Positions 4,880 through 52,211 of a DNA stretch of 64,000 nucleotides are shown one piece after another; positions within the stretch are counted from its first letter, which is position 1, and every line of letters begins with the position of its first letter. The translations under genes and the position numbers were made by a program. Source of the stretch: Leucocoprinus leucothites (taxonomy: Eukaryota; Basidiomycota; Agaricomycetes; Agaricales; Agaricaceae); the NCBI GenBank assembly GCA_013368445.1, contig JAACJO010000060.1:1-64000 (forward strand), written 5' to 3'. Below the pieces are notes generated by a model. That model worked only from the letters and a program-made list of their open reading frames with translations, made no database searches and was not told the DNA's origin.

Positions 4880-5420
4880 TGCTGGTTCGAATAGAATGTT
4901 TGTGGTTATTTGTACTCTCGACAATATAGATCTCCACGTGATGCGCGTCGCGGGCTCACTATCCTGGCGTAGACTGCTGGCGGTCTGTGATCCAGGCTGA
5001 AGAAACAACCATTACTTCGAAGTAGGCATTGACGACGGCTATAGGGCGCTGATCACCTGGATTTAATACCAGAGCTACATAATACAGGCGGAGTATTGAC
5101 CGTGAAGCGTGGCACTATGCAAATACAACGACGGAACATGATCAACCAAAGCAAAGTCCATTATTCAAATATTCAAGAGCCAATAATGCGCCAAAACACT
5201 CAATAATACAAAAGATACGAAGGAAAAAGCGGATCATGGTGAAGAGACAAAAGACAAAATAGACTCGGATAACGTGAAGCATCATCTCAAGGTTTTAAGA
5301 CTCGATCGACATGCAAAAGACTGAGATAACGACACCAGGCGGTACTGCATCTTTAGCTCGTCTGAGGGAGCATTTACTGTTTGGCTCGGAGCCGACCCTG
5401 TCCAACATCCTGAATAACAA
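4880..5420. repeat. Left edge of the tandem array (3' flank type)
   Basis: The stretch after the coiled-coil gene's 5' end resembles 56040-56330, 45470-45760, 49690-49930 and 50715-50920. All share the order 'agatctccacgtgatgc', 'tctgtgat..aggctg..gaaac', then 'gatcacctagattta'. In the other copies this sequence lies between the ATM1-like 5' end and the seven-TM 3' end. It marks where the tandem array starts. Confidence 0.65.
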
Positions 5421-5469
5421 CGCAGATGAGAAAAGACATCCCACATACCTCCGAGAATAACCTGACCGT

Positions 5470-6630
5470 CTACACCTTGCCCTCAGCGTCCATCTCTGAT
5501 TCGCCGCCCCTTTCGGGCCTGAGAAGGCTCCTGTTTAACCCTCCATCACGCTCAATAATGTCTGGTTTCTGCTTTCCTCCAACCTTCTTTTTTGCTCGTT
5601 CCTTTTCCATCTCAATTATATCATGAAGGATCCCCAGAATGCCAGGCACCAAGAGAAAGACAGAAATGTTCTGGCCATATGTCCACTGTGACTCTCCAGG
5701 TTGCACAAAAGAAGCGGCCTCCTGGACCATCCACTCTGTACCGACGACGATGCCCACCAAGAAACCAATATCAACAGCGATAGTGTACGCATAGAGTACC
5801 CTCCTGGCACGCGGTGAAATCAGGGGTGTGGTGAGAGGTGCGAAAGTGAATTTCTCTCCTTCCGATGGAGTGCTCTCAGCTGGCTCTTTGGATCTGATCC
5901 CCTTAATCAGACTCATGCTGTTCATGAACACCCCTAACACCGTGCCGAGACCGAAGATCGTGTACAAAGAAAGGAATGCCCCGCGAGTTGCAGGACTGTT
6001 GCTAAAATAGGTATGGCCAAGTATACGGATGGGTATCGGCAGTCCGGGCTCGCATTGATTTGTTGAGCCAAAGGTGTCCACCGTAGCCCAGAACCACAGG
6101 CCAAATCCAGCAAAAAGGCCCATCGAAACATGCATCCAGACCGATAAGAAGGAGTCAAAGAGGGGGGAACTGCCAGGACAGGAAAATGGATCAATGTCGC
6201 CGAAAGTCACAAACCTTCTCCTGGCAGGATCACGATATCCGAGTCGATGATTAACATCAACCGAGAAGGACTCGGTGCTTTGGAACAGCCGATTTATCAT
6301 ACCAATGTTGGAGTACAAAATGTGGCTTGCAAGGTTGACCCATCCAAGATTGAGCACAATGATAGCATGGTACACACTCAGTCCATAATTCCTGGACTGA
6401 ATGAATGCCGACAAGAAGAGCGCACCAGTGGTGAGGATGATCCCAGTCATTTGGGTGTAAACGAGGCGAAGGCTAGTCTGTGGGGTCACCCCGCGCTCTC
6501 TTATTACCGCCCAAATAGCGACAACAAGACATAAAACGTTCTGGATGTAGGCGGTCACTCGGATCCCAACGCCAGCAATGTCAGGATTGGCTGGTATGCA
6601 ATTAGGGGGAATTGCTACGACTACCGTCAT
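5470..6630 (-). CDS. Seven-TM membrane protein, array copy A
   Basis: A single open frame of 386 residues. It is polytopic, with about seven hydrophobic segments near residues 24-45, 60-82, 90-112, 163-185, 215-240, 283-305 and 322-345, and a charged Lys/Glu/Arg-rich tail, so a membrane location is likely. Motifs shared by all copies include CIPANPDIAG near the N terminus, SAFIQSRNYG, LNLGWVN, GFGLWFWATVDTFGS, and TEWM followed by SQWTYGQ. I know no named domain or function for it and make none up. The ATG at 6628-6630 directly follows a 5'-UTR intron conserved in copy B. Copies B, C, D and E lie at 45.9-57.7 kb on the same strand. It is intact and has kept its CpGs, so it may be an active copy. 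Confidence 0.8.
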   Translation of the reverse strand: MTVVVAIPPNCIPANPDIAGVGIRVTAYIQNVLCLVVAIWAVIRERGVTPQTSLRLVYTQMTGIILTTGALFLSAFIQSRNYGLSVYHAIIVLNLGWVNLASHILYSNIGMINRLFQSTESFSVDVNHRLGYRDPARRRFVTFGDIDPFSCPGSSPLFDSFLSVWMHVSMGLFAGFGLWFWATVDTFGSTNQCEPGLPIPIRILGHTYFSNSPATRGAFLSLYTIFGLGTVLGVFMNSMSLIKGIRSKEPAESTPSEGEKFTFAPLTTPLISPRARRVLYAYTIAVDIGFLVGIVVGTEWMVQEAASFVQPGESQWTYGQNISVFLLVPGILGILHDIIEMEKERAKKKVGGKQKPDIIERDGGLNRSLLRPERGGESEMDAEGKV

Positions 6631-6633
6631 GAT

Positions 6634-6755
6634 CTAACGGATTCTGGTATGAGGCCTCGAAACCGGTAGCGACTTGAAGGACATTAACTCACCTTGTCTG
6701 GATGCGTTGGATGGCGCAATGTCTGTGTCGCAGCGGCCGGTCATGCTAACTTATA
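6634..6755 (-). promoter_or_regulatory. Conserved 5'-UTR intron and TATA-like promoter of seven-TM copy A
   Basis: A GTGAGT donor (ending at 6692) and a GTTAG acceptor, just before ATCATG, bound a 59-nt intron in the leader (6634-6692). Upstream, at 6737-6755, lies TTATAAGTTAGCATGAC on the minus strand. The same block, TATAAAG(C)TAACATGA, occurs before copies B (about 47211-47234) and E (about 57862-57888). It is degraded before copy D (52274-52295), where the TATA core reads TGTAAAG. Confidence 0.6.
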
Positions 6756-9696: not shown

Positions 9697-11752
9697 TCAC
9701 TTCTTGCTCTTGTTTTCAGCAGGTGAACTTTTATGCTTTTTCGGAACTGAAATGTTGGCCTGAATTTCATTTGGCACGGTTTCGAGTGTGGGCAGTGGTG
9801 TTGTGTTGAAGGGGATGATAGCTTCCACCAGTGTTGATAGTGCAGATGCAACACAGTCAGCTAGGGGGCTGGAGAGTGGAGGGTTGTTCTGGGCAGCTGA
9901 TTCATCACCCCAACGATCAGCACTCCGAGATAGAGGCACTAATCTCAAAGCCGGGCCAGCTGGAGGTCTTCGGGCGAGGCCCGTAGATGTACCCTGTATG
10001 GGGAAATGTCATTAATTAGACTAATAAAATGAAAACTGATCAACAGTAAACACTTCACATTCTTGGGGGAGGGGGACAGATTGCCAACAGCAAGGACCTG
10101 GCAAAGAGGGCTAGAGACACAGGGGCTTGTTGCAAGAAGACACTGTTTAGGGCTAGGTGTTCGAGGTATCTTTGAAAGCAACTGTTGAGCATTTGTTGAA
10201 GAGGGCATCTTTGGAGGAGAATCAGTGTGGATTACTAGAGGTGACTGGACCTTGGGTGAGCAATGGGCTTGGGAATGCTGAGGTCCCTCAGAAGAGCAGG
10301 CTTTGGACAGGGGGGAGGGTGTCCTTTGTGGGGACAACATGGTTGAGGGATCCTGGCTTTGTTGAGGTATTTTGTCGGGTGTCATGAGCCGGGCCTCAAG
10401 AACGGCTGATGGTTTGAACTTGGTAATATTTTCATGAAATACTATCTGTTCTCGCATATCGGTTACTTCAGTTTTTATTGGTCTTTCACCTTCAGACTTA
10501 TTCTGACATCTTCCATTTTATTAATTCATACCACCTTGTTGAAATTTTCTGACAACCGTTTAATAGTAAATTTTCTATCTTCTAGCCTTGTAAAATTTGC
10601 GGACTCCACTTTGATTATTTCTCTGTTTACTACTTTGCTTGTTTTCCTTATCCGATCCTATATTCCGCATCGTATATAAGTAGCACGACTTTGTACTTGG
10701 ATGGGGCAGTCTGATAATCAACTTAGCAATACGCTACTTTCCTCTGCTCTCTGTTCATCCTCTGCTCTCTTATCTAGTCTGAAATTTGGGTCAAGCGTCA
10801 GTAGTCGGCACAACACATAAGTTGAGGCCATGGCCCGCTCCTACGTCCGAAGACCGGCTCCTGCCTTACCTCTGTACCATCTCTGTCCATCTGGTCCTAG
10901 ACGTCGGCTTCTCACCCGTAGCGTTTGCGCGCTTAACATCGGGAGATGATGTAGCTGACCCAGCTGTGTGGCCATCACTTGCACTGGTGATATGATCTTC
11001 TCTATGCTCTGTTGTCACTGGTTTGATAGACCTGTTGGTGTAATTGCTGAGCACTGCAACTGGTGGGGTTGCTGGTTCACATTGGGTGGTTTCTGTATCA
11101 CTGTCATCTGGAGTGACAGCCATGGAAGGTAGATTTACAATAGGTTGATCTTGACCACTTATTAGGTTATAGTTCCTGGCACATAATCAGTAAGTAATGG
11201 TTTCACATTTTCTATGCACATACAAAGGTCCTTCGAAGAGGGAAATGGTGGGATTCACAGAAAGGATAGCTGCAAGAGGGATAACCTTCTCTGATTTCAT
11301 TGAACTGGGATTCAGATTTGGGTATTTGTGGAGAGCTTTATGATTGACACAATAGAGTACTTGAGACTTGGGAGTCTCCATTGTTGACCAAGGAATAGAG
11401 CTAGCACAACCAGAAGCCTCTACAATACAATGTGTTAGTGGCATAAAACAGGTTTAATAGACACACACCCCAATTTTTTGTCATGTACTGTGAAAGTACT
11501 GCCCTCATCTCCTTGGCAGTCACAGTGTCGGGATCAAAGGGGCATACAAAGTACTTTCCACTCAGTGACTGAGATAGAAGAGGGGCATCTTGCTTGTTGT
11601 GATCTTCAACATAAGTTCAGAGAAGCCAAAAGGATCAATACACGAGGTAAACACTTACGTGACAGCCATTCTTCAGCCAAAATCCCCAGCTGTTCATGAC
11701 TGTTATTATCCCAGACTTTATAGAAGTCTTCCTCTTTATCAGTATGCTTTCC
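9697..11752 (-). pseudogene. 3' part of an unknown gene split by the KDZ element
   Basis: Minus-strand exons with clean splice sites: about 11659-11752, 11469-11603 and 11419 downward to about 11200, then 10866 to about 11170, 10059-10457 and 9697-9993. Introns show GTAAGT...GAAG, GTGTGT...GTAG and GTGAAG...ACAG and join in phase. Encoded blocks include EEWLSHHNKQ, GKYFVCPFDPD and a PW...M...SEKVIP segment, followed by a Ser/Pro-rich tail with a Lys-rich end. I recognise no domain. The PW plus 'SSMKSE' pattern recalls unnamed proteins seen around transposons in Agaricomycetes (weak recollection). The first exon runs straight into the inverted repeat at 11760; its upstream exons lie beyond 23896. 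The links around 11180 and 10460-10865 are unresolved. Confidence 0.55.
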
Positions 11753-11760
11753 AATGTTTG
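11753..11760. repeat. 8-bp target site duplication, left copy
   Basis: AATGTTTG directly abuts the terminal CACCTCAGG of the left inverted repeat. The right copy is AACGTTTG. The single difference is TG for CG, the change expected from deamination of a methylated CpG. Confidence 0.75.
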
Positions 11761-12967
11761 CACCTCAGGTTCCCCTTAAACAGGTAATGTAATACATGGT
11801 AGTTGATGCAAGTACCCTGTATTACACTAGCATTCCAGTGGCATCCCCTGCATGGGCTTGCAAAGGTCCTACAAAGGTCAAAAAACTTAGCCCCTCCCCT
11901 CAGTCCTACTCAGACCTTTTGGACATCATAGGCTGGCATCTCTGGCTCAACCCACTCTGCTGATGCCTTCCCGATTAGTCCACACTGTGGACTTCTCTGT
12001 CTTGTCCCACCATCATTCTTGTGATATGTTTCCCACCACTCTCTTACTGTCTCCTGTCATCCTCCCTGCCCTACCTCCTGCCCCACCTTCTGCCCTGTGA
12101 CAAGGTGACACCCAAATTGGCCAAGGCCTTTGCCTCATATGGGCTCCCATGGTTGATTTCCTCCTTCATCCTTGTTACTACCACCCTTCCTTACCCTCAT
12201 TGCTACTCCACCCCCCTCGTCACTGTTGGTAGCAGCAGCAGTGATTGCCATAGGACTACTAACAATACTGCAGCTACTGATGAGTCCCCCCCACTCCTGG
12301 GGGCTTTCCAAATGTGTGTAATGAACAAACTGATGAATGCTCACTGTCTGCTGATGTGGTATCTTACACCAGCACCCTTGTCTTGCCTTGCCCTACTGGT
12401 GGTATCTCACACAAATGGACCTGATGTATTGCTTTACCCTACTGCTTACTGAGGTAGCATCTTGTACTGATGTGCTTGATGTCCCGCTATCCCCCTGCTT
12501 TCCAACATTGAAGGTATGTAGTTGATAGATTTCTATACTCATGGTTTATGCTGATGTAGCATTTCTTTCTGATGATCACATTCACCAGTCCTCTCCACTG
12601 CTGTTCTCAATGATTAACAATACAATGAAGGCCCATTGTCTACATTAGAGCCTCTTGGCTACTGTTGGCATCGACACACCTACGGGAAACGAAATCCTGG
12701 CCTAGGATTTTCTTTCCCAGCCACACCTCTCGGCGATCAGCAAGTACACCAGCCTATTGCCAACATTGGTGCCCAGTCACTGCCCAGTCAAGGTCCCATC
12801 ATGCCTCCCTTTCGTCCCTCACCCCATCCCTCTTGCACATGAAACATCACCACCTTGTTCAGTCCTTGCACATGAAACAAATATGTCCCAATGTCATCAC
12901 ACAAAAGGTATGTATACACCGTATCCTGGTTATGTTTTTGTTGATCACTGCTTTACTCAGTCACTTG
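11761..12967 (+). repeat. Left terminal inverted repeat of the KDZ element
   Basis: About 1,207 bp, the reverse complement of 22693-23895 with scattered differences, many CG versus TG/CA. Both arms start with CACCTCAGGTTCCCC. Open frames in both arms (12021-12452; 23208-23638) look alike only because the DNA is repeated. I do not call them genes. Confidence 0.85.
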
Positions 12968-13034
12968 TACTGCCAAGTCAAGGTCTCATCATGCCTCCCC
13001 TTCGTCCTTCACCCCATCCCTCTCACACATGAAA
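12787..13034 (+). repeat. Short direct duplication at the inner end of the left repeat
   Basis: A block of about 59 bp beginning GTCAAGGTC(C/T)CATCATGCC and ending with a CATGAAA motif occurs at 12787-12845 and again at 12976-13034. The second copy lies just inside the inverted repeat and has no partner next to the right repeat, so it is a left-side duplication. Confidence 0.7.
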
Positions 13035-13906
13035 TATGGCTGTCACTCTCCTTTACCATTGTCCGCTCTCAATGGAGGTAGCTACACACCCCTGCAATCA
13101 CATCCCCAATAGCTCATGAAAATGTGCAGCTCAATAGGAGGAAGGCCCACTGATTCACCCTCAGTTCCTCCCTTGCACCCATCATATTGTCTGCTTGTGT
13201 GATACTATCTCATCATCTTGTCCTTTACTCTTTACCTGCCGTTTGTTTTTGCTTCATTCCTGTATCAGTGCTCATGACATGGTAGTATGGTACATCTCTA
13301 TATCAGCACATATGACATGTCAGTAATGTACATCCTTGAGCTAGCACACATGATATGTAAGTTTGGTGTTCCCCCATGTCCCTTCATTATGAGATCAGAG
13401 ATTTACTTGCCCACTACCCTTCATGTTGTGGTTGTGTGCTTTGAACCTCATGATGCATATGGTACAGCCTAAAGGCCATTGAGATAATAAGTAGTAGGAG
13501 TGATGCTCTGGTACCTGCTGTGTTTGATTAGTGTTGAAGTGGCTGGCGACCAAGCCAGTGTTTTGGCATGGTGTTTACTATGTCATTAACCCCCCTACCC
13601 TATGACGCATGAGGGTCATCAGTTACCTGTGGTGACATTAGGCTGACAGCTTCTGGAGTCCAGTGTTGTGCTGCCAGCTCTCCCATCGCTATTTTAGTAA
13701 ATAAAACAAGGTGCCAGATGATGTGAGATCAATGCGGCATCAGTGGCCTTCAGGTATGTGGGAAGCAGCTGGAAATCCACCACTGTCAGTAAATCAATGC
13801 TGTGATTTCCTATGCTCTTTGGGTACTTTGAAACTGTACTGTTTTATATCACATGTAAACCTCAGTAAAATATATTTACTATGTCAATGAAGTCTAAATT
13901 AATCAT
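12968..13906. other. Noncoding stretch between left repeat and transposase
   Basis: Apart from the short duplication I see no gene. Three 'gcacatatgacat'-like motifs near 13270-13350 suggest a weak local repeat. Confidence 0.5.
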
Positions 13907-16900
13907 TTAGAAAACCACTGCAAGTAATGTTTCAAGATGGTCCCTTAACTTGTCAGACTCAGGGTCTACATTCTCATCATCAGCATGATCCATGTAGGGT
14001 TCATCCTGGTGGCTTGTGGAAGCTGGAGGGATGACATTGATGACGTTAGTTACTAAATGTTTGTTCTGTGGAATTCCTGGTGTTAGATTACCAGTAAAGC
14101 CAGTGGTTGTCTTGAGTTTGTCAAACTTTGTCATGTGGAGCTTGTTGAATTGCATATGTTTGAGATGATAAAGTTGAACTTGATGGGCAAGCAAAGGATC
14201 AGTCACTGAAAGTTTGGCTTCCTGGCTGAGGAGAAACTGTTCCTCATCCTGAATATGCATGACAACACGCCTGATCTCAATGTTCAGCCTTTCAATCTCT
14301 TCCTTGGCCCTTTTGATTTTGAAATGTTGATTCATGAGCATTTGGATAGCTGGCAAGGACCAGGGGCAATCACGTATATCTTGACGTGATTCTTGGAGGA
14401 GATCAAAATCTGAGAGGAATGCATACTCCACCACCTCATCCCAGGTCAGGGTAGGGCATTTTGGTCTCATTGCTTGGGCAGCCGAGTTGTAGTGCTCGAG
14501 TGCCCCCTTGACTGCTTGGGAACAAGCCTGAAGTGCCTTTGAAATATGTTGGTGGAGTTTGTATCCTAGCATTGATTCATGAGTACTTGGCAGCAGCTTC
14601 AAAGATCCAGTAACACACAAACCTGTCCCTGACATATTCATTTTTGAGAGCTCAAACACTCTTGAAACCACCATGCTCTCGAGTTCATCAAGGCATTGCT
14701 GGTACTGCCGCTTTTCAACCATCTCTTTTGCCTTATGCCAGGCATCCGACTCAGCATTCCACCACTCCTCGACATTGAGCTTCACTTCAAGCTCTTGCAT
14801 AGCAGTAAGACACCTTTCTTCTTTTTCTCTTGCATGTTAGTGTTGCACAGCCACTCCTGTACCCTTTGGAGCCCTATATGATGCCGTTCCCCCTGTTGTA
14901 GGCTCCACCCACAAAAATATGTTCTCTCCATTTCCATTAGCTTCATTGGCCTTTCTATCAATATCAAAGGTTCAGGCGTGTTAGGGGTTCAGATGGACAA
15001 TACCTGCATACCTATATCCCTCAAGCTCAGCTAGTCATTGATAGTATTCCATCTCTAACGTCTCTTGAACAGGCTCTGGTTATAATCCCTGCAGGTATGA
15101 CTGTTCTTCTTCGAGCCATACTGTAAACACATTTGTGTCTTCAATGCTGTGATCATCCAATGATTGTTTCAGGGCAGCCTCTCCAGCAATAATACCAAGG
15201 GCTTGTTTATAGTTACTGACAATGAACGAGCCTGAAGACTATGGTAAGCAGAATGAAGTGAGATAAAACAAAAGAGATTACTCAGGCTTTGGGAAGTTTT
15301 ATAAGTGTCTACATGTTGTAAAAATTTGATAATCTTCTGTTGCTGGTGGAACTAACTTGCATACCAAGTCGAAGCCACCAATGCATTTGATCTTGAAAAA
15401 AAACTGCTCACATCCCTCCAAGTCCTCAAGGCCAATTCCCTCTACATAGGTGGCCAGATTTGAAAGCTGGCAGAGACGGTTATGTGCATGACCATGAAAG
15501 GACCCCACAAGTGAAGTGTAGTTGAGGTCCTGAGCACATCGACCAAGGTTGCTCTGACTTAATGTACTTGAGAATTTACAACCAATGTCATAGCCAGCAC
15601 CAATATCTGACCCTAGTGCCTCAAGCAGTGTCTCAGCTACTGCGAGGGGTATTTGGACCTACAATAGTAAATAGTAAATTAGTAATAATCATACAGTAGA
15701 AAAAAAAGGCATACTGTTCTCTGCTCTGAGCCATATCCGCTACAGCAAGTGCATAGCCATGACAACAAAGTGACATAAAGATTCCAGTCTCATTGAAGAT
15801 GCTCCACATGCAGGAGGTCTTGTCAGTCATCATGTTTTTCCAACGAGATGCACATGGATTGTCTTCAGGCACAGAAAGTCGCAAGTCTTCATTCTGCATA
15901 CTACTGTGTCATGTATGGCGGTTTACAGCTTCACGGCTCAAATAATAATCCCCTTGAACCTCACATGAGTCAACAATCTCAGTGGCAGTCATTAGTGGGT
16001 TTCCATCTCCACTGTCCTCTACATTTCTATGAAGAATGTGCTTTAGCAAGTCATTCCTGTCCATTGTAACAAGCATGTTGAATCTCAATTTTTTCTCCCC
16101 CTCCAATTGGTAGGTGCAAGCCAAACAAACATTCTTCAGGCACCAATGGTATGTATTCCGACCAAGTGAGCTCAAAATCCGCAGCCGAACTTCATTATGA
16201 AGCTGGAGAAAGAGGTCGTATGAGATAGTGAATTGTTTTGCCAAGTGTGGATGGTAAACAACACCATGAAGATCAGAGATACTCTTGAGAAAGGCCTCAA
16301 TTGAGAGGTGTGGGCATCACGAGCTTGCATTCCGGTAGTATTCCAAGGTATGTGTTGAGATTACAGTTGATGGTTGAAGAGGAGCAGATGGCATCATGCC
16401 ATGGAGAATTAACTCTGCCACAAGAGTATCTGAGGCAGTGTCGGTACCAACAGTCATCACTTTGGTATCTGAAGAAATGTGAGTCTCTGGTGTACAATAG
16501 ATAACAAATGTTATTGCCCACAGAACATATCCACAACCTCAAGCTTCAAAACTCCTGATGTACCAGCAGCCATAACTAGACCTGATGAATCCAAACCCTT
16601 TGATGTTGATGTCTGCTACCATTCCATGAATGCCTTGGTCATACTCGGCATTTGAAGCCTGAAGGCTTCAGTTCATATTTCAAGACAGTCACTCCTTGAA
16701 GAACAAGAGTCGTATTGAGCTGGTCTAAACCATATTAAATTTATTTCAGTCTTCTCATGGCAACTAGTAGACCACTATACCGAGGCATATCATAGCCCTC
16801 CCAGAGAATTTGGAGCATTTCTCCTCCTGCGTGACTTGTATTCATTAATAAATCCCCTTGAAGAACATCCTGCATGAAGTCTTCATCAGGATGTGACAAG

Positions 16901-17183
16901 TCTGAGCCTGCTGTGCTTGAACAGAGCATCTTGCTGGTTTCTTGCAAGTCATAATCTACTTGATTGATAGGAGACTTGTACACAGCAGTAGGAAGAAGAC
17001 AAATCACTATTTCAACTCACCAGCCTTGCATTTCCGCATGTCAGCTAATTCAGCATCCATCTGCTCTTCAAGTTGTTTTGCATTATAACAATAACCATGA
17101 CCACTATTAGAGTCTTCAGTAAAGCGAGAGGTGACAAAAAATGCCTTTCTGGAGGTGCTGGAGGGTCCAAACTGCTGCTTCAT
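13907..17183 (-). pseudogene. KDZ-family transposase, inactivated
   Basis: Recognisable KDZ blocks in order: an N-terminal piece near 17030-17183; LEYYRN then CPHLSIEAFLK near 16250-16345; CLACTYQLEGE with a degraded 'DGN.SLKR' block reading MDRNDLLKH near 16035-16135; DETGIF-like NETGIF and CCHGYAL near 15750-15800; YDIGCKF near 15573-15593; GSFHGHAHNR.CQ then ..EDLEGCEQFF near 15395-15508; NYKQALGII and WLEEEQSYL near 15110-15220; and a helical C terminus at 13907-14800 (WDEVVEYAFL, HFKI.RA.EEIERLN). These are family landmarks for the RNase H-fold transposase and its HxxHNR..CQ region. Breaks: TGA at 16317-16319, TAA at 15080-15082, TGA at 15035-15037, and an apparent one-base loss in a C run near 15645. 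I found no clear CxC2 cysteine cluster. It cannot make a full enzyme as read. Confidence 0.85.
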
Positions 17184-18569
17184 CTCTCTTGCAAAGTGGG
17201 TGCAGAAAGGAGTGAGTATTTAGGGACAGGTTGTAGCGAAACAAACCTCCGTTGCCAATCAACAAGGTATGATGTATAAGATCTGGTGCCAGATCTGGTG
17301 CAGTTACAGGGTGAATGGAGCAGTGGCAATACCTTGTGAAGCCTCCACAAATTATATTTGAGCATTGACGAGAGAAGCGATCACATTCTTTCCAAGTCTC
17401 AAGGGTGCACACTCCTTGTCAGGGATGCTTTTGAGTTGATTGCCAGCAATCTTTCTACTGATCACCCTGAAAGGGTCCTTATCTCAATGAATCAATGCCA
17501 AAATATAGAGGATCACATTCACTGTGCACTCAAAGGTGTGTTGGAAGACATACTATGTACTGTACAGTGGGTGCTGTTGTTTGATTAACAACATGTATGA
17601 TTAGATGAGGTGTTGATAACTGATCACTGAAACATGAAATGGTGTAAAAGCGGGGGGAGTATGTGCCATATTGTTGCATCAAATATACATCTTGATTGTA
17701 TGCTTGCACTGATTGACTGCATGCAATCATGTATCAACTTAAGTAGTGTACACCATACTATTTAACAATACCACCTATAATCAGTACTGAGTTTGAATTC
17801 AGACACTCTGGTTCGGTAAGTGGCAGTTTATCATGTTCATAAGTGTCCTGAGCATGCATTGAGCTTATACCAATCTGTTGCATGGGACAATGCATTGACT
17901 GGGATATTGCACAGATGCGGTACATTATCCAAAAGTGCACATAGTAGGCACTACCAAGCTCGACTTGTCCAGGTGTTGTCACTCGATCTAGGTTGGAGTG
18001 ATGCAACAACACCCAAAACAAGCTGAAAGCCCACCTCAAGTTGTTCAAGCATGTGCCTCTATCTACATTGAAGTTACATACCATGAATTCACTTGCGGCC
18101 AAACTCTTCCTTGCAGATACTTTATAATTACTATTCTTCACATTGTTGAGTCTGTCAAATCAGCTGGGTTGACCGAAAGTGAAGAATTCAGGTTGCGCTT
18201 TCTGTGTCTTTGAAACCGACTTTATTGTAAGCAGAATGAAGTAAACAAGCCCAGATCAAAAGTTCTATACCTGAAGTGCCCTGCGATGTTTACTCGCTCA
18301 CCACAAACAAGATGTGCTTGGTGTGAGTCAAAATGCTTGGCCCACCACTATGGATTGTGTGATAGTTCACTCTGTCTCAGTGAGCTACCATTATGGCAAC
18401 TCTAAATGAGATGACAAGTCCATTCTGTAATAAGTGCCTGTAACCATTGTAGTGACATTCACAGTATTGCCCTGAATATTGAATTGATGCAATTTGAGGG
18501 AAGAGCCAAGGGCTCATAATCATATCTCATTACAAAACTCAGATATACATGGAGACTTGCTACTATGTG
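17184..18569. other. Unassigned sequence upstream of the KDZ transposase
   Basis: Open frames of 60-130 codons occur on both strands (for example 17758-18141 minus), but none shows a domain or joins by splicing to a longer frame. The region may contain the transposase 5' end and promoter. Confidence 0.4.
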
Positions 18570-20073
18570 CTACAAAACATCATCAGAATTTAAGAATGGC
18601 CCATAGGTTTGACAGATGGTCCCGTCATCATTATAGCAGATCAGATCAGATGTCATGAATGCCATAGTAAAGGCATGATTGGCATTGGCACGGTTATCAA
18701 AGCTTGCTACCTTGGCCTTGCCTGACTTGCTGATAGCCTTCTCAGTAATAGCCCTAAATACATCCATTGATTTTATGAACCCTGAACTTGTGAAAAGTAG
18801 CATACCAATTCCTGAAGACCCCAATGTTTTTCCCATGCATGACAACAAAGAATTCGTTATCATTTTCTGTGTCTTCTGGAGCATGGTGTTAGTACAAGCG
18901 ATTGACATTGACATACAACATACCATCAGAGAGAATATTCTGTATTTTTGCATAAGCATCATCCATGAGGAGGATCGGTAGTGCTGCAATGAAGTCACTC
19001 AATGTCTGAAATCAGAATCTGGGGCCTACATTGCAAGAATAAAACTTACACAATATCCATCACATTATCACCTTGAGTGCCTTCAGTGAGTTGAGGAACA
19101 GGGAAGGATTTTCTATATTGAGCAGTCATCAGACTTATTGGTAAGTGGGTGTTGAAGCTAGGGCACATACATATCAAAGCCGATTTTGTCATCTGGCCAC
19201 CAGACTGGGGGGATCTTCTGGCCTTCCTCACCAACCAAACTGTATTGAAGGGCAAGCTTAAATATAGTAGCTGCTTGATGAATGGTCATGTAGCCCTTAT
19301 AAATCGGCTTAAGGCTTGGGGTATGCCTTGATTTCCAGGCAATCGTGTATGGTTTTGCTATTGCCCTGTAACAGTCATGGTAAGATCAAGCAAGAGTCCA
19401 ATATATGAAACTTACCAGTCGGTGAATATTCCGACTTGCTTGCTGCAAAAGATGATATAGGCGGCAAAATTTTGTCTCTTTGGGCTTTGAGGAGAAGCCA
19501 CCACAACTGTCCGAGTGAACCGGTTATGCACTGGTGTAGCTGGCATCTGAATACGAGAACCTGGAGGAGGAGTCTTGGGTTGCATAGCCAGTGTGACCTG
19601 GGGACTGTCAGTAGCTGAGGTAGCATTGTACCTCGACTTCCATTCGTCACCAGAGAGCACTTTGAGCTGGCTCATGGACTTGGTCAAATTGGAAACATAA
19701 TCTAGGCAAGAATGATTGTTTTGTTAGTAAACAATGAAGCTCGAAATCTGGGTACCAGAAGGCTTTATCATTCCTCAGTCATAGCAGTAGGGTGTAGGGA
19801 GAGGAAGAAAGGAATGACACTAAACAAGTCAAACTCAGCTTATAAGGCATTGCTCAATTTTCCCATGAAGTAATGTCAGTAGAAACCAAAAGTAAACAAA
19901 CGGGATCTCTTACGACGTTTGATATGATTGTCTGTCAGTACAATGAGCTGACCTATGTAATGCGAGCAGAAGGTTTTGTTGCCCTGGATCTCCTCAGAAC
20001 TTTCAGATCTCATCTCAAATGAGCAGTTGTGAGGGCAGAGTGCTGATGGCATTTGAGCAAACCAGCTATACAT
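18570..20073 (-). CDS. Cargo protein with two RNase H1 N-terminal-like repeats
   Basis: Seven exons (19914-20073, 19416-19701, 19171-19365, 19050-19112, 18924-18997, 18806-18875, 18570-18753) total 1,032 nt, joining to 343 residues plus stop. All introns have GT...AG ends; lengths run from 50 nt up. The two repeats read FAAYIIFC-SKQVGIFTDW followed, after an intron, by PIYKGY and an Ala/Phe helix; and FFVVMHG-KNIGVFRNW followed, after an intron at the same place, by VASFDNRANANHAF. The pattern 'xxY/VV..G...GIF.W....xxV.GF....kgF.t...A' matches the small RNase H1 N-terminal (viroplasmin-like) fold, which binds RNA/DNA hybrids or double-stranded RNA in known proteins. No catalytic RNase H domain follows. 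A nucleic-acid-binding role for the element is inference. The start could lie further upstream. Confidence 0.7.
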
Positions 20074-20232
20074 TTGAGTGAAACAGTAGAGCTGAAAATA
20101 AAATAAAAACCTTTTTTCAGAAGCGAGGGAAGGGGTTGTGTACCTTTACAACATAAATAAGAAAAGCTATAAAGCTGGTAAACAATTTTTCACTTCATCA
20201 AAAACCATTCGCTCATCTTGTCCTGTTATTGA

Positions 20233-22132
20233 ATGGGTCAGCATCTCTGTCATGCGTTCACTTACCAAGCTAATAATGAACCAAACCAGAGCCCAGAACC
20301 CCCAGCCTAGGTGAAAGTGCCCATGAGGCCTTGACATCTTCATTGGTTACTCCAAGTCATCAACGAGGACCAGTAGGTTCTGCCAGTGCCGAGCCAGGTC
20401 AGTACAATGAGTGCCATCTCAGAATAGTAATGCTGACACCTGTTGGGGCAGTCATACAGTCCGCTGGAGAGAGTAATCAAGCCAGTGAGGCTGACCATGG
20501 ACCCACCAGCAATGCCAATGCTATCCCCACAGGTAGTGTATATCTGCTTCTCTTTGTTGACTAATAAGCTGATGACACCTCATAGGCTTACAAAATGCTC
20601 AGTGTGACACTTCTAACCTGAATGCTGCCATTGCCAGTGTTAATCAGGTGGCCACTGGTGAATGGAACCACCTACCCTCTCATCAAAGCTACACAGGCCG
20701 CCACCCTTTTCAACCATGCAATCCTGTCTCACATCGCTCTGTACGTCATGAGAAGGCCATTGCCAAGGTCTCTGCATCGAACTTCCGGAGAAAGGCCGCA
20801 CTCCTAAGGGAAGACATTCAGGTTATGAATGCTACTCATGAACAACAGATTATTGACCTTGCAAAGAAGCACCGTAAGAAGGTTGAATACATCAGGCAGC
20901 TTGCAAATCATGCCCCATCCTACAAGCGAGTGGGACAGATCTTGTTGAAATGGGCATTGCTGCATAAGAAGGCCAAGGAGCTCAACATGCATAAGCTTTG
21001 ATTATGCATGAGGGTATCTGTACTCAGACTGATGGAACATTAGACTGACCAGCTGGGGTGAAGGCAAAGCTCCCAGAAATTCGCACAGCATTGGAGGCCA
21101 ATAAAGATCTTCAGCCGGATAAGATGTCACAGCTTGAAAAGGATGAAGCTATCCAGGATTTGGCTGATCATCATAAGCTCAAAATGACTGGAGCCAGAGT
21201 AAGCAATTGCACAGCAACCATGGACTATGTGCATACAGTCAGAAGAGTCCAGTCAGAGGTGAAAAGTCTGTCTTGTCTTGAAGGTGCTAGGGCTAATGTA
21301 ATTTGTTGCAGTTGCTGTCCAGTATGACAGCCTGAATTCTTGCACTGGCATCATTGGATTTGGGATGTTCTCATGAACACATGTCAATGACGGTGCAGTC
21401 CCAGCTTGGGTTGAATCGAAGAGGGCCTTAGACTATGTGAAGGATGAGCTCAAGATGACCATCCCAGAGTTCTCGGGTGGGTTTGAGCTCTGGGCTTGTA
21501 GCAAGGGTGCTAGTAAGTATTGCCTGTATCCATGCTGTTCAGATTTGTTCTCATTCAATCACCCTTTCAGAGAATGGAGACAGGCTGAGTGAACTTCAGA
21601 AAAGGTGCTGTGAAATGATCAATAGCAGCCTCAGTGAGTATGTCTTTGTGTTCTGTCAGGATACCTAGCTCACCCAGTCCTCACAGATCGGGCTCTTGGG
21701 CACCCAAGTGGTCGAATGTATTACAGAGATTACAATACTGCAATTCGCCTTTGTTACAAGATCCAGCTCAAAGGGTGGCCTGATGGTGTGGAATTCAAAT
21801 CACCTTATGAGATCTTGCACATTGACAACATTCGCATACTACATAATGCCTTACATCTCAACCAATGTATTTGGGTGCAAATGACCCTATCTGAGGTCAG
21901 CAAGCTCACCAATGCAGTCAAGGCACAACCAGCAAAGCAAAGGAAGAAACGAAGTGATGCAGGTCAGACTCATAAGAAGCCAGGAAAGCGCTGTGGGCAT
22001 GCTGATCAAGAGAATGTCAACCCAAATGAGTCTGCCAGTCCCATGAAGAAGAGAAGGGTTACAAAAGCTAAGGGTCAGGTACCACTTGCTCCTCATAGTC
22101 AGTCTATTATAGAGAATAGTGACAGTGATTGA
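20233..22132 (+). pseudogene. Lysine/arginine-rich cargo gene of the KDZ element
   Basis: Plus-strand exons join through GTCAGT...GCAG, GTAGTG...ATAG, GTGCTA...TCAG and GTGAGT...CTAG introns. The product has a helical, basic middle (EKAIAKVSASNFRRKAALL; LLKWALLHKKAKELN), a second helical part (KAKLPEIRTALE), a WACSKE block, a GWPDGVEF block near the end, and a C-terminal tail with KQRKKR and KKRRVTKAK, likely nuclear signals. I recall unnamed proteins with this order near KDZ transposases in Agaricomycetes, but know no function. Breaks: a TGA at 21374-21376 inside 'FS*THVND', where arginine is expected, and unclear joints near 21000-21060. The 5' end between the ATG at 20233 and 20331 is uncertain. 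Confidence 0.55.
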
Positions 22133-22692
22133 GCTTATGAATTTGACATGTAGCTAGTCCATCATCACGGAGAATCGTGATGTTGACAGTTACACTATAT
22201 CATGCAGCTTCAATTAAAACCAAATATATCTCATAGACTCAACTACTTGGGTTTACATTGATGTGAGAACAAAAAAAAATGCCAGCAGGTTCTCTATGTT
22301 ATGTGGGGGAGTTCTAGAGATATTCTGTATAGATCCCTGAGGATGGGAAGGTATAAAAGAGTGGACGTTACTGACACCCATGACAAACATATGAAGACAC
22401 ATGGATTCTTGGCCCGAGGGCTGCACTTCATACCCAGGATCAGGGCAAGTTGATAGTGGAGTTGGTGTACAAGACATAAGACAGGCCACAGGGTTAAACA
22501 AGTGTATTGTGTATGGGAAGCACAACAAGATAGGGAGGGAGGGTAAGAACTAGGGATAACATAGCAGCTCGCTCATTTGAAATGTGTGAGTAATGAATGT
22601 TTTGTGATAATGTGAATCAAGATGCTCATCAGTCAGTCCATGCTGTCAAGACAAATGGACATAGTTGATGCAAAGACATCAGGCCTAAAGAC
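22133..22692. other. Noncoding interval before the right inverted repeat
   Basis: No gene, promoter or repeat that I can support. The longest frame (22253-22528, minus) is a low-complexity shadow. Confidence 0.45.
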
Positions 22693-23895
22693 CAAGTGAC
22701 TGAGTAAAGCAGTGATCAACAAAAATATAACCAGGATATGGTGTATATATACCTTTTGTGTGATGATATTGGGATGTATTTGTTTCATGTGCAAGGACTG
22801 AATGAGGCAGTGATGTTTCATGCGCAAGGGGGATGGGGTGAGGGATGAAAGGGAGGCATGATTGGACCTTGACTGGGCAGTGACTGGGCACCAATGTTGG
22901 CAATAGGCTGGTGTACTTACTGATCACCGAGAGGTATGGCTGGGAAAGAAAATCCTAGGCCAGGATTTCGTTTCCCACAGGTGTGTCGATGCCAACAGTA
23001 GCCAAGAGGCTCCAATGTAGATGATGGGCCTTTGTTGTATGGTTAATCATTGAGAACAGTAGTGGAGAGGACTGGTGAATGTGATCATCTGGAAGAAATG
23101 CTACGTCAGCATAAACCATGAGTATAGAAATCTATTGACTACATACCTTCAATGTTGGAAAGCAGGGGGATGGCGGGACATCAAGCACATCAGTACAAGA
23201 TGCTACCTCAGTAAGCAGTAGGGTAAAGCAATACATCAGGTCCATTGGTGCGAGATGCCACCAGTAGGGCAAGGCAAGACAAGGGCGCTGGTGTAAGATA
23301 CCATGTCAGCAGACAGTGAGCATTCATTGGTTCATTCATTACACACATTAGGAAAGCCCCCAGGAGCAGGGGGGACTCATCAGTAGCTACAGTATTGTTA
23401 GTAGCCCTATGGCAATCACTGCTGCTGCTACCAACAGTGACGAGGGGGCAGAGTAGCAATGAGGGCAAGGAAGGGTGGTAGTAACAAGGATGAAGGAGGA
23501 AATCAACTGTGGGAGCCCATATGGGGCAAAGGCCTTGGCCAATTTGGGTGTCACCTTGTCACGGGGTGGGAGGCAGGGCAGGAGGTAGGGCAGGGAGGAT
23601 GACAGGAGACAGTAAGAGAGTGGTGGGAAATGCATCACAAGAATGATGGTGGGACAAGACAGAGAAGTCCACAGTGTGGACTAATCGGGAAGGCATTAGC
23701 AGAGTGGGTTGAGCCAGAGATGCCAGCCTAGGATGTCCAAAAGGTCTGAGTGGGACTAAGGGGAGCTAAGTTTTTTGATCTTTGTAGGACCTTTACAAGC
23801 CCATGCAGGGGATGCCACTGGAACACTAGTGTAATACAGGGTACTTGCATCAACTACCGTGTATTACATTACCCATTTAAGGGGAACCTGAGGTG
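22693..23895 (-). repeat. Right terminal inverted repeat of the KDZ element
   Basis: About 1,203 bp, the partner of 11761-12967. Its outer end reads ...GGGGAACCTGAGGTG and then the duplication AACGTTTG. The inner end falls at CAAGTGACTGAG, matching CTCAGTCACTTG at 12956-12967. Confidence 0.85.
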
Positions 23896-23903
23896 AACGT
23901 TTG
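23896..23903. repeat. 8-bp target site duplication, right copy
   Basis: AACGTTTG directly follows the right end; it pairs with AATGTTTG at 11753-11760. Confidence 0.75.
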
Positions 23904-32804: not shown

Positions 32805-33104
32805 TGTTATGTATATTGATTATATCTAGCATTTGTTTCCTATACAATATGAAGTTGATATTAGCTTTACTTAAGTAATATCACAATTATGTTTTCATCT
32901 TATTTGTTCTTGTATTTTCCTAGTTTGTTTTGACTTGTTTACTTTGTCTCGTCATGACTCAGTATGACTTGTTTGGTTTTGTTTACCTTTTTGATGACAT
33001 GTGATTATTAAATATAGCTGCGCTATATTTGGACTATCTTGTGATCTAGTCAGATGATCAAAGAAGAACTTCTAAAGCTTCTTTGACAGATTGCATCCTA
33101 TATA

Positions 33105-34693
33105 CAGTGGCTCAAAAAACTGTCCCAATGTTTTCGCATTTTGGACATATTTGCTAATACCAGGGCAGATATATGGCCTAGCATCCTGAAAATATTCACA
33201 CAGGTACCTTAACATATTGGGAGCATATATTCCCATGATCACATGACCTTGTCCATCAATGAATTATTAATGAATTATCGAAAATATCTACTCATTGGGA
33301 CAGTTTTTTGACCCCCTGTCAGCCTCCTAGTATCTACCTTGTAACATGCCAGGGGAGCATCAGGGCAGGTGTGGGAGTAATAAACAAGATCATGTGACCT
33401 TGGTTGACATATTGAGATGGTTACAACTGTCTTTCTTCCTGCCACCACATCATGAAAGCTATCTCCTCTACCCAATACTCTCAATTTACTTTTCTTCTCA
33501 AAGATGGCTATTCCTTGTGCCAGATTGAACTTAAAACTGGTCTAGGCAAGTTTACTGTTGGGAGGATCAAGTAAGAAGTTGATGGGAACAAGGAAAACAA
33601 CTAGGGAGGACATCCTTCCAAGCTTTCTCCTTGTGATAAAAAAGCAATAATTCACCAAATAACCTCTGGAAAGCTAGACAATGCTGTCCAGGCTACAAAT
33701 TTCATTAACTCTACTCTGTCTGACCCTGTCACACCCCAAACTGTCAGAAATACCCTTCAGGACAATGGATTTCACTCTGTAACCAAGATTCTATAGCCTC
33801 TACTCAAAAAGTGACATCATGAGAAACACCTTGACTTTGCACAGGAACATAGGAATTGGACAGTGGAGGACTGGAAGAGGGTGTTGTGAACAGATGAAAC
33901 AAAGATCAACAGGATTGGGTCAGATGGAAAGGTGTATACCTGGAAGGAGAGGGGGGAACCACTGTCAGATAGGACCACTCTCCCTACTGTCAACATGGAG
34001 GAGGTGGTAACATGATGGTGTGGGGGTATATGGGGTAGAATGGGGTAGGAAAGCTGATAGAGGTTCAAAGGAGTATAGATGCAGTGCAATACTACAAGAC
34101 TTTGGACAATGGGGTGGTGGAAAGCTTTGAAAAGTTGGAGATGGAGGAGGAGAGGATATTCCAGCAGGCTGATAACCCAAAACACACCTCAAAACTGGGA
34201 CAACAATGATTTGTGGACAACAATATTCAAGTTCTATCATGGACTGCACAATCCCCTGACCTAAATCCCATTGAACACCTCTGGACCTACCTGAAGGACC
34301 AGCTGAAGGCATATGAAAGACCACCCAAGGGAGTATTTGAATTGTGGGAGGGGCTAGTAGAGGAGTGGAATAAGATTCCAGCAGAAAGGTGCCAAAGGCT
34401 GATAGAAAGCATGCCCAGAAAGATTGAGGCAGTTATCAGGGCAAGAGGAGGTCATACAAAGTATTGAGTAGGTAGATAACAGAGGGTCAAAAAACTGTCC
34501 CAATGAGTAGATATTTTCGATAATTCATTAATAATTCATTGATGGACAAGGTCATGTGATCATGGGAATATATGCTCCCAATATGTCAAGGTACCTGTGT
34601 GAATATTTTCAGGATGCTAGGCCATATATCTGCCCTGGTATTAGCAAATATGTCCAAAATGCGAAAACATTGGGACAGTTTTTTGAGCCACTG
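33105..34693 (+). mobile_element. Tc1/mariner element, copy 1, inside the 5' LTR
   Basis: A 1,589-bp element flanked by TA on both sides, beginning CAGTGGCTCAAAAAACTG. It has inverted ends of about 215 bp; inner and outer parts share 'AAAAAACTGTCCCAATG'. The uninterrupted site reads TATATAGTTTAATTAGC in the 3' LTR and the solo LTR, which proves a TA duplication. Confidence 0.9.
33452..34467 (+). pseudogene. Tc1/mariner transposase copy 1, inactivated
   Basis: Starts MKAISSTQYSQ and has an N-terminal helix-turn-helix region (LLKDGYSLCQIE...TVGRIK). The catalytic blocks are TDETKINRIGSDGKVYTW (first Asp) and QSPDLNPIEHLWTYLK (second Asp and Glu), typical DDE of Tc1 elements. Stops include TAA after GRIK, TAG in KENN*GG and TAG in KIL*PLL; the centre also has frameshifts around 33990-34200. 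Copy 2 at 42601-43620 is better preserved. Confidence 0.85.
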
Positions 34694-35517
34694 TAGTTTA
34701 ATTAGCATTAAGAAAGCTGTACGCTTCTCTTCTTTCATTAGAAGCCATTAGCCCTAGTTAATAATAGATACAGACTTGTATTGTATATAAGCCATCGACA
34801 TCTACCAAGGAGAAACATTGTTTCTACTTGGTTAGGTGGAGACTCAATACAAGCCTTTATCCACACAAAGTAGAATTGAACTTAAGCCCTAAGATCTCAA
34901 TTACTAAAGTCTTTACTCTTATAATCGCTGTATTATAACTCTGACTTTGTAAACAACTTTGTTGCTTACCGAGAAGGAGTCCCCTTTGATAAGATCAAGT
35001 CAATACTTATCGTGCCAGCTTAGGACCATGCTGGCATCACTATAACATTAAGTATAAACAATCCTTCTCTGTTAGCACAGAACTGTTACTTTGCCCAGTA
35101 ACCCAACAACATTTCAAACACTGTCAATTTGGGTTATCGCGGTTATCACACAAGCTGTCCCAAAACTATTGTGCATAACAATGAAGAGAGGCTTGACACA
35201 CACTGCCAACTAGTGGAATAGTTGAGGATCACTCTTATTGATCTGAGTGAATACCCACACTCTTAAAACATTTGGAGGCTAGTGAGAGCTAAGGTCATAG
35301 CACCTAAATCTCAAATAAGATACCAGACCCGAGGGTAGATAGATACTCAGAAGAGAGAAATTTGCCAGAAGATTTGGCATATCTCTGAAGAATACCAGAC
35401 CCAAGGGTAAATACTCGGAAGACAGTTTATCTGTTGAAAGTCTTAAGAGACTATAAATACACAGTCTTAGTGACTATAAAGGTGAGCCCAAAGCGACTAT
35501 AAACTAATTTTCCAATT

Positions 35518-37723
35518 ATGGCAGAATCAAACTGCAAGTGTGATAATTGTCTTAAGGACAATTTACCATTTAATACCATACCAGATGTCTCTATAGGCAC
35601 CCATAAACATAGTCCACAATGGACCCAGCAGAGTTTGCAAGACAGGTTGAAGTCTTTGCAAGAAAGGAGTTCCCAGAAGAATCCTATAGTACTTACTACA
35701 GTGAAACCCGGAGAACAAGATTCTACAGAAGTAAAGGATCAGGAAGATTCTATTACATCAAAGAACACAAAGGGAAAGTTGCCTATGTCCCAATCAAGAA
35801 AGAATAAGAAGGGATTCTTGAAGCTGAATTTGCCAAATTTGGTCACAAGCAACTTCACAGAACTGTCAAACAACAAATTGAAGGAGGAGCAGGTCTTGAA
35901 GAAGTTCAAGACGTTACCCCAGAGCAGTATACTGAAGAAGCAAGAAAACAACAAAACCCATTTCCAGGAACCCCTGCAGATTCTAGCAGGACCGTCAAAC
36001 CAGAACCAGTCCTCAATGTTATTCCAAGAACTGGAGAAACCTCACAAGAAAATAATTCAGAGCCTAGAGTTGACACTCCAAGCTCAGAAGAATCTGAATT
36101 TGACAAAGAAGACAAAGAAGAAGACAAAGAAGGAACAGATAGCAGAAATAGAAGCTAACAAGAATCTGAAGGAAATTAAACAGAAGAGGAAGCAGAAGCA
36201 CTCACAAGGGCAATCAATAATCTCAAACTCAAATCCCCAGAGAAGCCCAGAGTTGACAGACCCCCTTCTTACACCTTGAGCCCAGCCTTTGGACATAGCC
36301 CAAGATTCCTCAGTCCCATTATGAACCCTATCCCCTTTAGCTTTACCAATTCCCCCACCAATATTGCCAGTACCAGTGCCCTACCAGCAACCAATCCCAA
36401 TGTTACTACAGCCAGTACCACCATCACTGTACCCACTAACACCCAAACAAAAGGAAAAGCAGAGGCAGTTGTCACCAACACAGGAGGTTCTTTGAATCAA
36501 AGAAACCCCACACCGCCACCACCAAGACCACAAGGAGGACCACCAAGTCCTGGAGGTAATCCGCCTGGAGGCCCAGAAGGACCAGGAGGACCAGGAGGAC
36601 CAGGAGGAGGACCACCAAATCCTAATCCAAACCCCCACCAAACCCAAACATGGCACAACCTCAAGCAGGATTCCAGCTCAAATATCCAAAGCCCAACAGG
36701 TTTGATGGCAACCCCAGCTACTACAGACTATGGATGGCTGAAGTCGAACTCTACTTCGACTCATATGGTGTCACAAGTGATACCCAAAGAATCAACTACA
36801 CCCTTGGACTACTCAATGGAGCTGCCAAGTTATAGCAACAGGATTACAGACTTAGTCAAGCAACTGCAGCCACCCAGGCAGGATATGTTGCACACACCTT
36901 CGACCAGTTCAAGAATGCACTCGAACAGTCATTCACTCCAACACAACAGAGCTTTGAGGCTGAAAGAGAGCTCTGTTATTACAGACAATGAAACAAATAT
37001 ATTGAAGAATATATCACCAATTTTTCCGTCCTCGCCTCATGTACAGGACTTGTTGACAGCACTTCTCTCTGATCCTACTTCACCAAAGGACTTGACAATG
37101 ATGTCAGATTTGAAGCAATCCGATCTGACCCCCAAACCCTCGACAAATTGAAAGCTGCTGCAAGACAAGCATACAAAGTTGTCCAAGAGCAAAGGAGATA
37201 CCACATTGGAAATTCTAATTCAGGATCTTCAAACAGATCAAGAAAGACCAAAAAGAATAGTAGACCACACAGACCTCAACCACGATATAATAACATCTAT
37301 AGTCAACCCCTACCTAGACCCAGACAATCCAAGTGGGACATGGATATCGACAGAATATCAAGAGGCATATACCAATTATCAGTCGAAGATGATTGGGAAG
37401 CAGACGATGGAGGTATATATGAACTTGGTGCAGAGGATGATGATAATCCTGAAAAAGAGGAGAGTGAAGGAGAAGACATCAACCAAACATATAATGAAGG
37501 ACCAAGCAACACAGACAGAGACATCTATGGTTTACTATACTCCCACATCATCAATAATGTTCTCACTGACAAGCAGAGAATCACACTCAAGAGAGGAGAA
37601 TGCTTCTTCTGCCACAAGAAAGGACATTTCACTAAATATTGTCCGGCAAGGAAGGTTTGGTTTAAGTCAACAGGAAAGACAAACATGGATCAAAGCAGAT
37701 GCAGAAGTCCCAGTCCAAACTGA
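35518..37723 (+). pseudogene. Chromovirus gag, broken
   Basis: The N-terminal frame from 35518 overlaps the better gag frame at 35619 (MDPAEFARQVEVF...). A Gly/Pro-rich stretch lies at 36480-36640. The capsid-like block is in the frame of 36650 (PKPNRFDGNPSYYRLWMAEVE), with stops at TAG near 36833 and TGA near 36987. The nucleocapsid zinc knuckle CFFCHKKGHFTKYC (C-X2-C-X4-H-X4-C) lies at about 37600-37641. Frame changes show it cannot be translated as one protein now. Confidence 0.75.
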
Positions 37724-37846
37724 AACAAGGGAATTGTAGACCTTTCAAGCCTAAAAGGAAAGATCCCAATGCCATGGTCTACGAAATAGAGTAGACCAAG
37801 CTAGTGATGAAGATGATCTGTTCCAAGAATACTCAAATGAAAATTT

Positions 37847-41224: not shown

Positions 41225-41269
41225 GAGTATAAAACCCAGCACAATCTCTCTTAACATTCCCCAGCTTCA

Positions 41270-42244: not shown

Positions 42245-42374
42245 TCTGGTGTACCAACTGGCAATCACAGTGCTCCCATCACCAATGTTGATAGACTTTG
42301 ATCCAAATGACATAATCCAACATCCATAGCTGTTAACACCACTGCTCTTGGCCCCACCTACAACCCTCCTTTTA

Positions 42375-44931: not shown

Positions 44932-44933
44932 CA

Positions 44934-52148: not shown

Positions 52149-52211
52149 GATGTAGCGGCTTCCGGGTGTGAGGCCATGATACCGGTTGCGACTTAAAGAA
52201 TATCGACTCAC

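What the first reader, a model, noticed from the sequence alone, without database searches (positions are those of the whole stretch)
11761..23895. KDZ composite transposon with 1.2-kb terminal inverted repeats and an 8-bp target duplication
Both ends, both duplication copies and the three internal genes can be read directly. Inverted repeats of about 1.2 kb are much longer than the short ends I associate with KDZ/Zisupton elements. The target copies AATGTTTG and AACGTTTG differ only by CG to TG. The cassette (transposase, RNase H1-N-like protein, Lys/Arg-rich protein) may be a standard mobile module in this fungus.
Basis: partly seen in the sequence, partly recalled or inferred. Interest (0 to 1): 0.85.

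Follow-up and report, generated by a model that had tools for sequence, protein, structure and literature searches.

The report
Decayed fungal transposon with kilobase-long ends
This is a dead copy of a cut-and-paste jumping gene in a mushroom genome, with precisely mapped ends that are unusually long mirror images of each other, and it belongs to a small group of related elements in the same genome that share this build.

Summary
The element spans 11761-23895 (12,135 bp), with inverted repeats of 1,207/1,203 bp at 93.6% identity. Three copies of the repeat it inserted into are uninterrupted elsewhere in the genome and carry one 8-bp target copy, AACGTTTG in C22, so the left AATGTTTG is probably a later CpG-to-TpG change. 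The transposase has a KDZ domain but is broken by a frameshift and in-frame stops.

No second copy of this family was found in the 47-Mb assembly. Four related elements (three families; C2 and C49 are one) share the build: TIRs of about 0.75-0.82 kb, CACCT...AGGTG ends, perfect 8-bp duplications, and a Lys/Arg-rich gene divergent from the transposase. All four were picked through that gene. They and the window fall in one KDZ clade (0.994). Loci of the other clade have a CxC2 domain, and 6 of 7 examined lack long inverted repeats.

"Composite" is unsupported, and the RNase H1-N-like gene is not a standard cassette part here. KDZ elements with 139-241-bp TIRs and 8-bp duplications are published (PMC12810828), so this is a long-TIR variant.

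The parts
11753..11760 (.). left target-site duplication AATGTTTG (probably the CpG-decayed copy)
   Evidence: the empty site in C22 reads AACGTTTG
11761..12967 (+). left terminal inverted repeat, tip CACCTCAGGTTCCCC
13910..16316 (-). KDZ transposase gene, disrupted (frameshift near 15.35 kb, several in-frame stops in conserved exons); the N-terminal end was not resolved
   Evidence: Pfam PF18758 within 15302-15908; tblastn to homologues; stops listed
18757..19723 (-). RNase H1-N-like gene remnant (two domain copies), one recognisable intron
   Evidence: homologue P0123 with PF01693 in two stretches; weak own Pfam scores; intron read by eye from the sequence printed; start coordinate worked out from the frames
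20576..22129 (+). Lys/Arg-rich accessory gene in about four exons (exon limits not resolved), divergent from the transposase
   Evidence: homologues P0121 (43%) and P0122 (42%) in Leucocoprinus birnbaumii; relatives beside four other KDZ genes
22693..23895 (-). right terminal inverted repeat, ends in ...GGGGAACCTGAGGTG
23896..23903 (.). right target-site duplication AACGTTTG (same as the C22 empty site)

Best explanation
This is a single, now inactive KDZ-superfamily DNA transposon. Shown: exact ends, kilobase-long TIRs, an 8-bp target duplication, insertion into a repeat that still exists uninterrupted elsewhere, and a broken transposase. Inferred: it moved by cut-and-paste, with the DD(E/D) transposase binding the TIRs and joining them to target cuts staggered by 8 bp; the Lys/Arg-rich protein is a conserved second element gene, perhaps a DNA-binding partner. 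After insertion the element was probably methylated and its CpG cytosines decayed by deamination, while the transposase was lost. It is one of a small clade of KDZ elements in this fungus, of which the five examined members all have long TIRs and CACCT...AGGTG ends (one tip base is changed in C34).
For: TIRs. Three empty sites with one 8-bp copy each. KDZ domain and homologous exons. Four relatives with the same architecture and perfect 8-bp duplications: TTCATTGT (C2), CCTAGCTA (C49), ATTTCAGC (C20), CTTTGTTT (C34). C2 and C49 are two copies of one family (94-96%) whose likeness stops at the TIR tips on both sides. The C49 copy sits in sequence like the inside of the C34 element, where C34 has the uninterrupted site with one CCTAGCTA. 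The Lys/Arg-rich gene lies 5.6-7.3 kb from a KDZ domain, on the opposite strand, for 4 of 6 non-self hits. CpG decay: 67 transitions, 6 transversions; 44 of 73 substitutions at CpG-derived sites, including 17 CA/TG swaps, against a mean of 0.67 and maximum of 4 in 2,000 random simulations.
Against: No second copy of the window's own family was found (the tool calls its counts lower bounds), so its ends rest on the empty sites, not on aligned copies. The transposase N-terminus was not resolved and no CxC2 match lies at C60. The four relatives were found through the Lys/Arg-rich gene, and two of them are one family, so they are neither an unselected nor a fully independent sample. Function of the Lys/Arg-rich protein is unknown: no Pfam match above cut-off, no PDB match, poor model.
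Confidence: 0.95

Rival explanations
1. A composite element: two copies of a smaller mobile repeat inserted in opposite orientation around a KDZ gene.
For: The repeats are long, 1.2 kb.
Against: The repeat was found nowhere else. No KDZ match lies in it and 7 of its reading frames gave no Pfam match above cut-off. Three other families have TIRs with no sequence match to it at E 1e-3 but the same plan. The inner edges were not tested for duplications.
Confidence: 0.02
2. The KDZ gene was captured by another long-TIR transposon superfamily (for example a MULE-like element), which did the moving.
For: Long TIRs and duplications of 8-9 bp recall other superfamilies (recalled, not tested). The window's transposase is dead, so which enzyme moved it is inferred.
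Against: KDZ is the only transposase recognised in the window element among 16 pieces or gene models scanned with Pfam TIR frames; not every frame was scanned. A KDZ domain lies inside all five elements. Cryptococcus KDZ elements have TIRs and make 8-bp (KDZ1) or 4-8-bp duplications on new insertion (PMC12810828, passages).
Confidence: 0.04
3. As to the role of the long TIRs (not exclusive of the best explanation): they grew from short ends by subrepeat expansion or conversion, and only the tips matter for movement.
For: Left TIRs of C2, C49 and C34 contain internal direct subrepeats, longest 336, 302 and 215 bp. Between families the TIRs have no match at E 1e-3 although the tips share CACCT.
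Against: The window TIR showed no such subrepeats. Its arms differ at 17 CpG sites hit separately in each arm, so conversion has not kept them alike recently.
Confidence: 0.35

Closest known systems
Cryptococcus neoformans KDZ1, KDZ2, KDZ3 (PMC12810828, passages read)
   Same: KDZ transposase; about 9-11 kb; TIRs of 241, 139, 169 bp; 8-bp duplications (KDZ1) or 4-8 bp (KDZ2, KDZ3)
   Different: Their TIRs are about 5-9 times shorter than the window's 1.2 kb; they carry CxC1, which was not found in this genome (where no control rang either); here a divergent Lys/Arg-rich gene, whose presence in theirs I did not check; this copy is dead
Zisupton and Dileera DNA transposons (PMC12730594, passages read)
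   Same: KDZ group; 8-bp duplications; Zisupton is described there as having TIRs
   Different: No TET/JBP domain turned up in the pieces scanned (no genome search for it was made); assignment to Zisupton or Dileera not made here, for lack of named reference sequences
Kyakuja (PMC12730594, passages read)
   Same: KDZ group in Agaricomycotina; CA...TG termini
   Different: The two Laccaria families described there have 7-bp duplications and no TIRs; this has 8 bp and 1.2-kb TIRs

Membership tests
KDZ superfamily | KDZ transposase domain (Pfam PF18758) | tested here: met
   two frames, 105.6 and 58.4 bits, cut-off 26.6
KDZ superfamily | 8-bp target-site duplication (Zisupton, Dileera, Cryptococcus KDZ1) | tested here: met
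   7 of 8 bases alike in the window, polarised by empty sites; 4 of 4 relatives perfect
KDZ superfamily | terminal inverted repeats (TIR-bearing lineages) | tested here: met
   1,207/1,203 bp; relatives about 0.75-0.82 kb
Kyakuja | 7-bp duplication and no TIRs | tested here: not met
Zisupton or Dileera lineage | placement on a transposase tree with named members | not tested
   no named reference sequences were held; the tree only separates this clade from the CxC2 clade
KDZ with CxC2 or CxC1 domain | Cys-rich N-terminal domain | tested here: inconclusive
   no CxC2 match at C60 (16 matches elsewhere); CxC1 rang nowhere, including controls
composite transposon | ends are independent mobile elements | tested here: not met
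   TIR not found elsewhere in the genome; no transposase domain in it

The most novel reading that the evidence does not exclude
In this fungus one KDZ clade is a distinct two-gene transposon type: kilobase-scale TIRs with CACCT...AGGTG ends, an 8-bp duplication, and a transposase paired divergently with a conserved Lys/Arg-rich protein that is part of the transposition machinery.
Probability: 0.55. Interest if true: 0.5.

Novelty: new variant of a known kind. Interest (0 to 1): 0.38.

Why it matters
It fixes the ends and target duplication of a mushroom KDZ lineage firmly (three empty sites for this element, one for a relative, and four relatives with perfect duplications), shows that KDZ TIRs can exceed 1 kb, and points to a second conserved element gene that can be tested. 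The two TIR arms, alike by descent, give an internal record of CpG decay after insertion.

Tried and rejected
Searching for other DNA-level copies of the family: only a 69-bp partial repeat beside the left TIR and three weak matches (67-76%). A 26-bp exact match of the right tip lies at C6:2251654, with no partner end found; left unexplained. In one search the backwards control pattern gave 3 matches against 5 for the pattern, but the three zero-mismatch matches were the two window ends and C6. The PF01693 family search gave 3 matches, all on C7, and missed the window's split gene, so the homologue P0123 was used instead. PF18802 (CxC1) rang nowhere, including controls, so its absence is not shown. 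A local search of 8 KDZ loci (7 of them with 10 kb on both sides, one with one side) with 15 window protein pieces, those of the Lys/Arg-rich and RNase H1-N-like genes among them, found nothing; these loci are all of the CxC2 clade, and even the KDZ pieces found nothing there, so this says little. A first tree was wrong because minus-strand loci were not turned; redone. The 'TSD' lines printed by my scripts for C49 and C34 were off by 2 and 1 bases; the duplications were read from the flanks printed in the same calls, and C49's was rechecked. C23 has a fragmented 82% inverted pair around its KDZ gene with no duplication seen in the flanks printed; not counted as a TIR. The structure model of P0121 failed (mean pLDDT 38.7; collected), so no fold search was made. 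Paper searches for KDZ or Zisupton with long TIRs: (none); searches showed nothing longer in the listings or in the passages I read. Supplements, Repbase and most subscription papers were out of reach, so absence from print is not shown. PMC3411680 (passages), PMC9674265 (passages) and PMC12510652 (passages) gave no KDZ TIR lengths.

Full report
What is there. Window 11761-23895 is a 12,135-bp element. Its ends are inverted repeats of 1,207 and 1,203 bp, 93.6% identical, with the tip CACCTCAGGTTCCCC. Outside lie AATGTTTG and AACGTTTG. The TIR search of the 47-Mb assembly gave the two arms and a 69-bp partial repeat just inside the left arm, nothing more. The inside gave three weak matches elsewhere (67-76% identity over 95-318 bp). 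So no second copy of this family was found; the tool calls its counts lower bounds. The first 26 bp of the right end recur exactly at C6:2251654, followed by other sequence.

The boundaries are shown by empty sites. The surrounding DNA is itself a repeat. Searches with each flank found places at C22, C47 and C55 where both flanks run on without the element. The junctions carry a single 8-mer: AACGTTTG (C22), AACGTTGG (C55), AATATTTG (C47). Thus the insertion duplicated 8 bp, and the ancestral state was most likely AACGTTTG, the left copy having lost its CpG later.

Genes. The KDZ domain lies on the minus strand within 15302-15908 (105.6 and 58.4 bits). KDZ-matching or homologous frames run from about 16.1 kb down to 13.9 kb; a further frame to 16316 looks like the same gene by eye. 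This copy is broken: P0013 aligns in one frame and then the next across a continuous stretch, and stops fall inside aligned exons. Between about 18757 and 19723, minus strand, are remnants of a gene with two RNase H1-N-like domains. Its own Pfam scores are below cut-off (13.6 and 16.7 bits), but its homologue P0123 from Leucoagaricus has the domain in two stretches (28.8 bits) and is 40-46% identical. At 20576-22129, plus strand, is a Lys/Arg-rich gene; 2 of 2,061 candidates passed the homologue search, both from Leucocoprinus birnbaumii. No known family or fold was found for it. The host is probably in or near the Agaricaceae; this rests on these few protein hits and is an inference.

The same plan recurs. 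Of six non-self matches to the Lys/Arg-rich exon, four lie 5.6-7.3 kb from a KDZ domain, on the opposite strand and divergent; the other two (C2:2826 kb, C34:190 kb) do not. With 19 KDZ loci and a 10-kb radius, chance is about 6e-8 if hits fell at random and independently, but C2 and C49 are copies of one family, so the true figure is weaker. All four of those elements have long TIRs: C2 785/770 bp, C49 770/770, C34 769/818, C20 about 754 bp in the right arm with an extra 0.66 kb in the left. All four have CACCT...AGGTG ends, except that C34's left end begins with T, and perfect 8-bp duplications: TTCATTGT (C2), CCTAGCTA (C49), CTTTGTTT (C34), ATTTCAGC (C20). Their lengths are 10,250, 10,231, 13,175 and 13,362 bp. 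C2 and C49 are 94-96% alike and the likeness stops at the tips on both sides. The C49 copy lies in sequence like the inside of the C34 element, and C34 there has the uninterrupted site with a single CCTAGCTA: a fourth empty site, and a nested insertion of one KDZ element in sequence of another. Between families the TIRs have no match at E 1e-3.

The RNase H1-N-like gene does not recur with them. P0123 matched only the window and C16; no KDZ domain was found on C16. The insides of the four relatives were mostly not fetched, so diverged versions could have been missed.

Contrast with the other KDZ clade. A tree of the domain's second half, with 18 of the 19 KDZ loci (the second C55 copy left out) and 6 outside proteins, puts the window, C2, C49, C34a, C20, C34b and the 6 outside proteins on one side (support 0.994), and the other 12 loci on the other (0.955) (midpoint rooting). 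All 13 loci of the second kind have a CxC2 match within a few kb, none of the six of the first kind does; 3 of the 16 CxC2 matches lie away from any KDZ match. Of 19 KDZ loci I examined the ends or surroundings of 12: five have long TIRs; of seven CxC2-clade loci, six have no inverted pair around the domain better than E 0.09 within about 10 kb on each side, and one (C23) has an 82% fragmented pair without a visible duplication. Seven were not examined.

How it decayed. The arms were presumably alike at insertion (inferred). They now differ by 67 transitions, 6 transversions and 4 gap positions. Seventeen sites read CA in one arm and TG in the other, best explained by separate deaminations of one ancestral CpG on opposite strands. 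Random placement of 67 transitions gives a mean of 0.67 and a maximum of 4 such sites in 2,000 trials. Ten more are CpG against TpG or CpA; six CpGs survive in both arms; 29 of 73 substitutions are not of CpG type. CpG observed/expected is 0.22 in the element and 0.10-0.32 in 4-kb bins from 12 to 52 kb, against 0.75-1.0 at 1-8 kb and 52-64 kb. In the relatives, CpG-type changes account for 8 of 11 TIR substitutions in C2, 24 of 26 in C49 and 16 of 26 in C34; C20 was not counted. Methylation itself was not measured. CpG-biased hypermutation in Agaricomycetes is known (Rhizoctonia solani AG8, PMC4014442, passages). Because of it, TIR divergence is not a plain clock.

Known or new. KDZ elements with TIRs and 8-bp duplications are known: Cryptococcus KDZ1 is about 11 kb with 241-bp TIRs, and KDZ2/KDZ3 have 139/169 bp (PMC12810828, passages). 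Zisupton and Dileera make 8-bp duplications; the two Laccaria Kyakuja families make 7-bp ones and have no TIRs (PMC12730594, passages). KDZ elements of about 30 kb are known in algae (PMC12477816, passages). In the searches made and the passages I read, I saw no KDZ TIR near 1 kb and no account of the Lys/Arg-rich partner; supplements, Repbase and most subscription papers were out of reach. I rate it a long-TIR variant of a known superfamily.

Noticed in passing
window 8001-52000: A CpG-depleted block (observed/expected about 0.1-0.45 in 4-kb bins) between two CpG-normal flanks (0.75-1.0), as expected of a methylated transposon island.
   Followed up: partly
window 33102-34695 and 42373-43970: Inverted copies (95%) of a 1.6-kb element with 217-bp inverted ends and a DDE-like reading frame (by eye); similar 217-220-bp inverted pairs, 1.6 kb apart and 98-99% alike, lie near KDZ loci C3a, C23 and both C27. 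That they are the same element was not tested.
   Followed up: no
window 35500-41900: Frames resembling a retrotransposon polyprotein (zinc knuckle, integrase-like stretch), recognised by eye only.
   Followed up: no
window 4891-6725, 44932-47598, 50718-53197, 56044-58730: Repeated copies (67-80%) of a membrane-protein-like gene family (by eye), one copy inside the CpG-depleted block.
   Followed up: no
window 53240-56043 and 59442-62271: An 88% direct duplication holding an ABC-transporter-like frame (by eye).
   Followed up: no
L050 (C6:2251654): The first 26 bp of the element's right end occur exactly at one other place, followed by unrelated sequence with short repeats; no partner end found.
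   Followed up: partly
window 10761-10938: A 178-bp stretch of a high-copy repeat (capped list) whose copies often lie about 7.64 kb apart in pairs, suggesting ends of an LTR retrotransposon.
   Followed up: no
C55:56218-57002 and C55:70761-71545 (G000): Two KDZ loci of the CxC2 clade in opposite orientation about 14 kb apart with equal scores, perhaps an inverted duplication.
   Followed up: no
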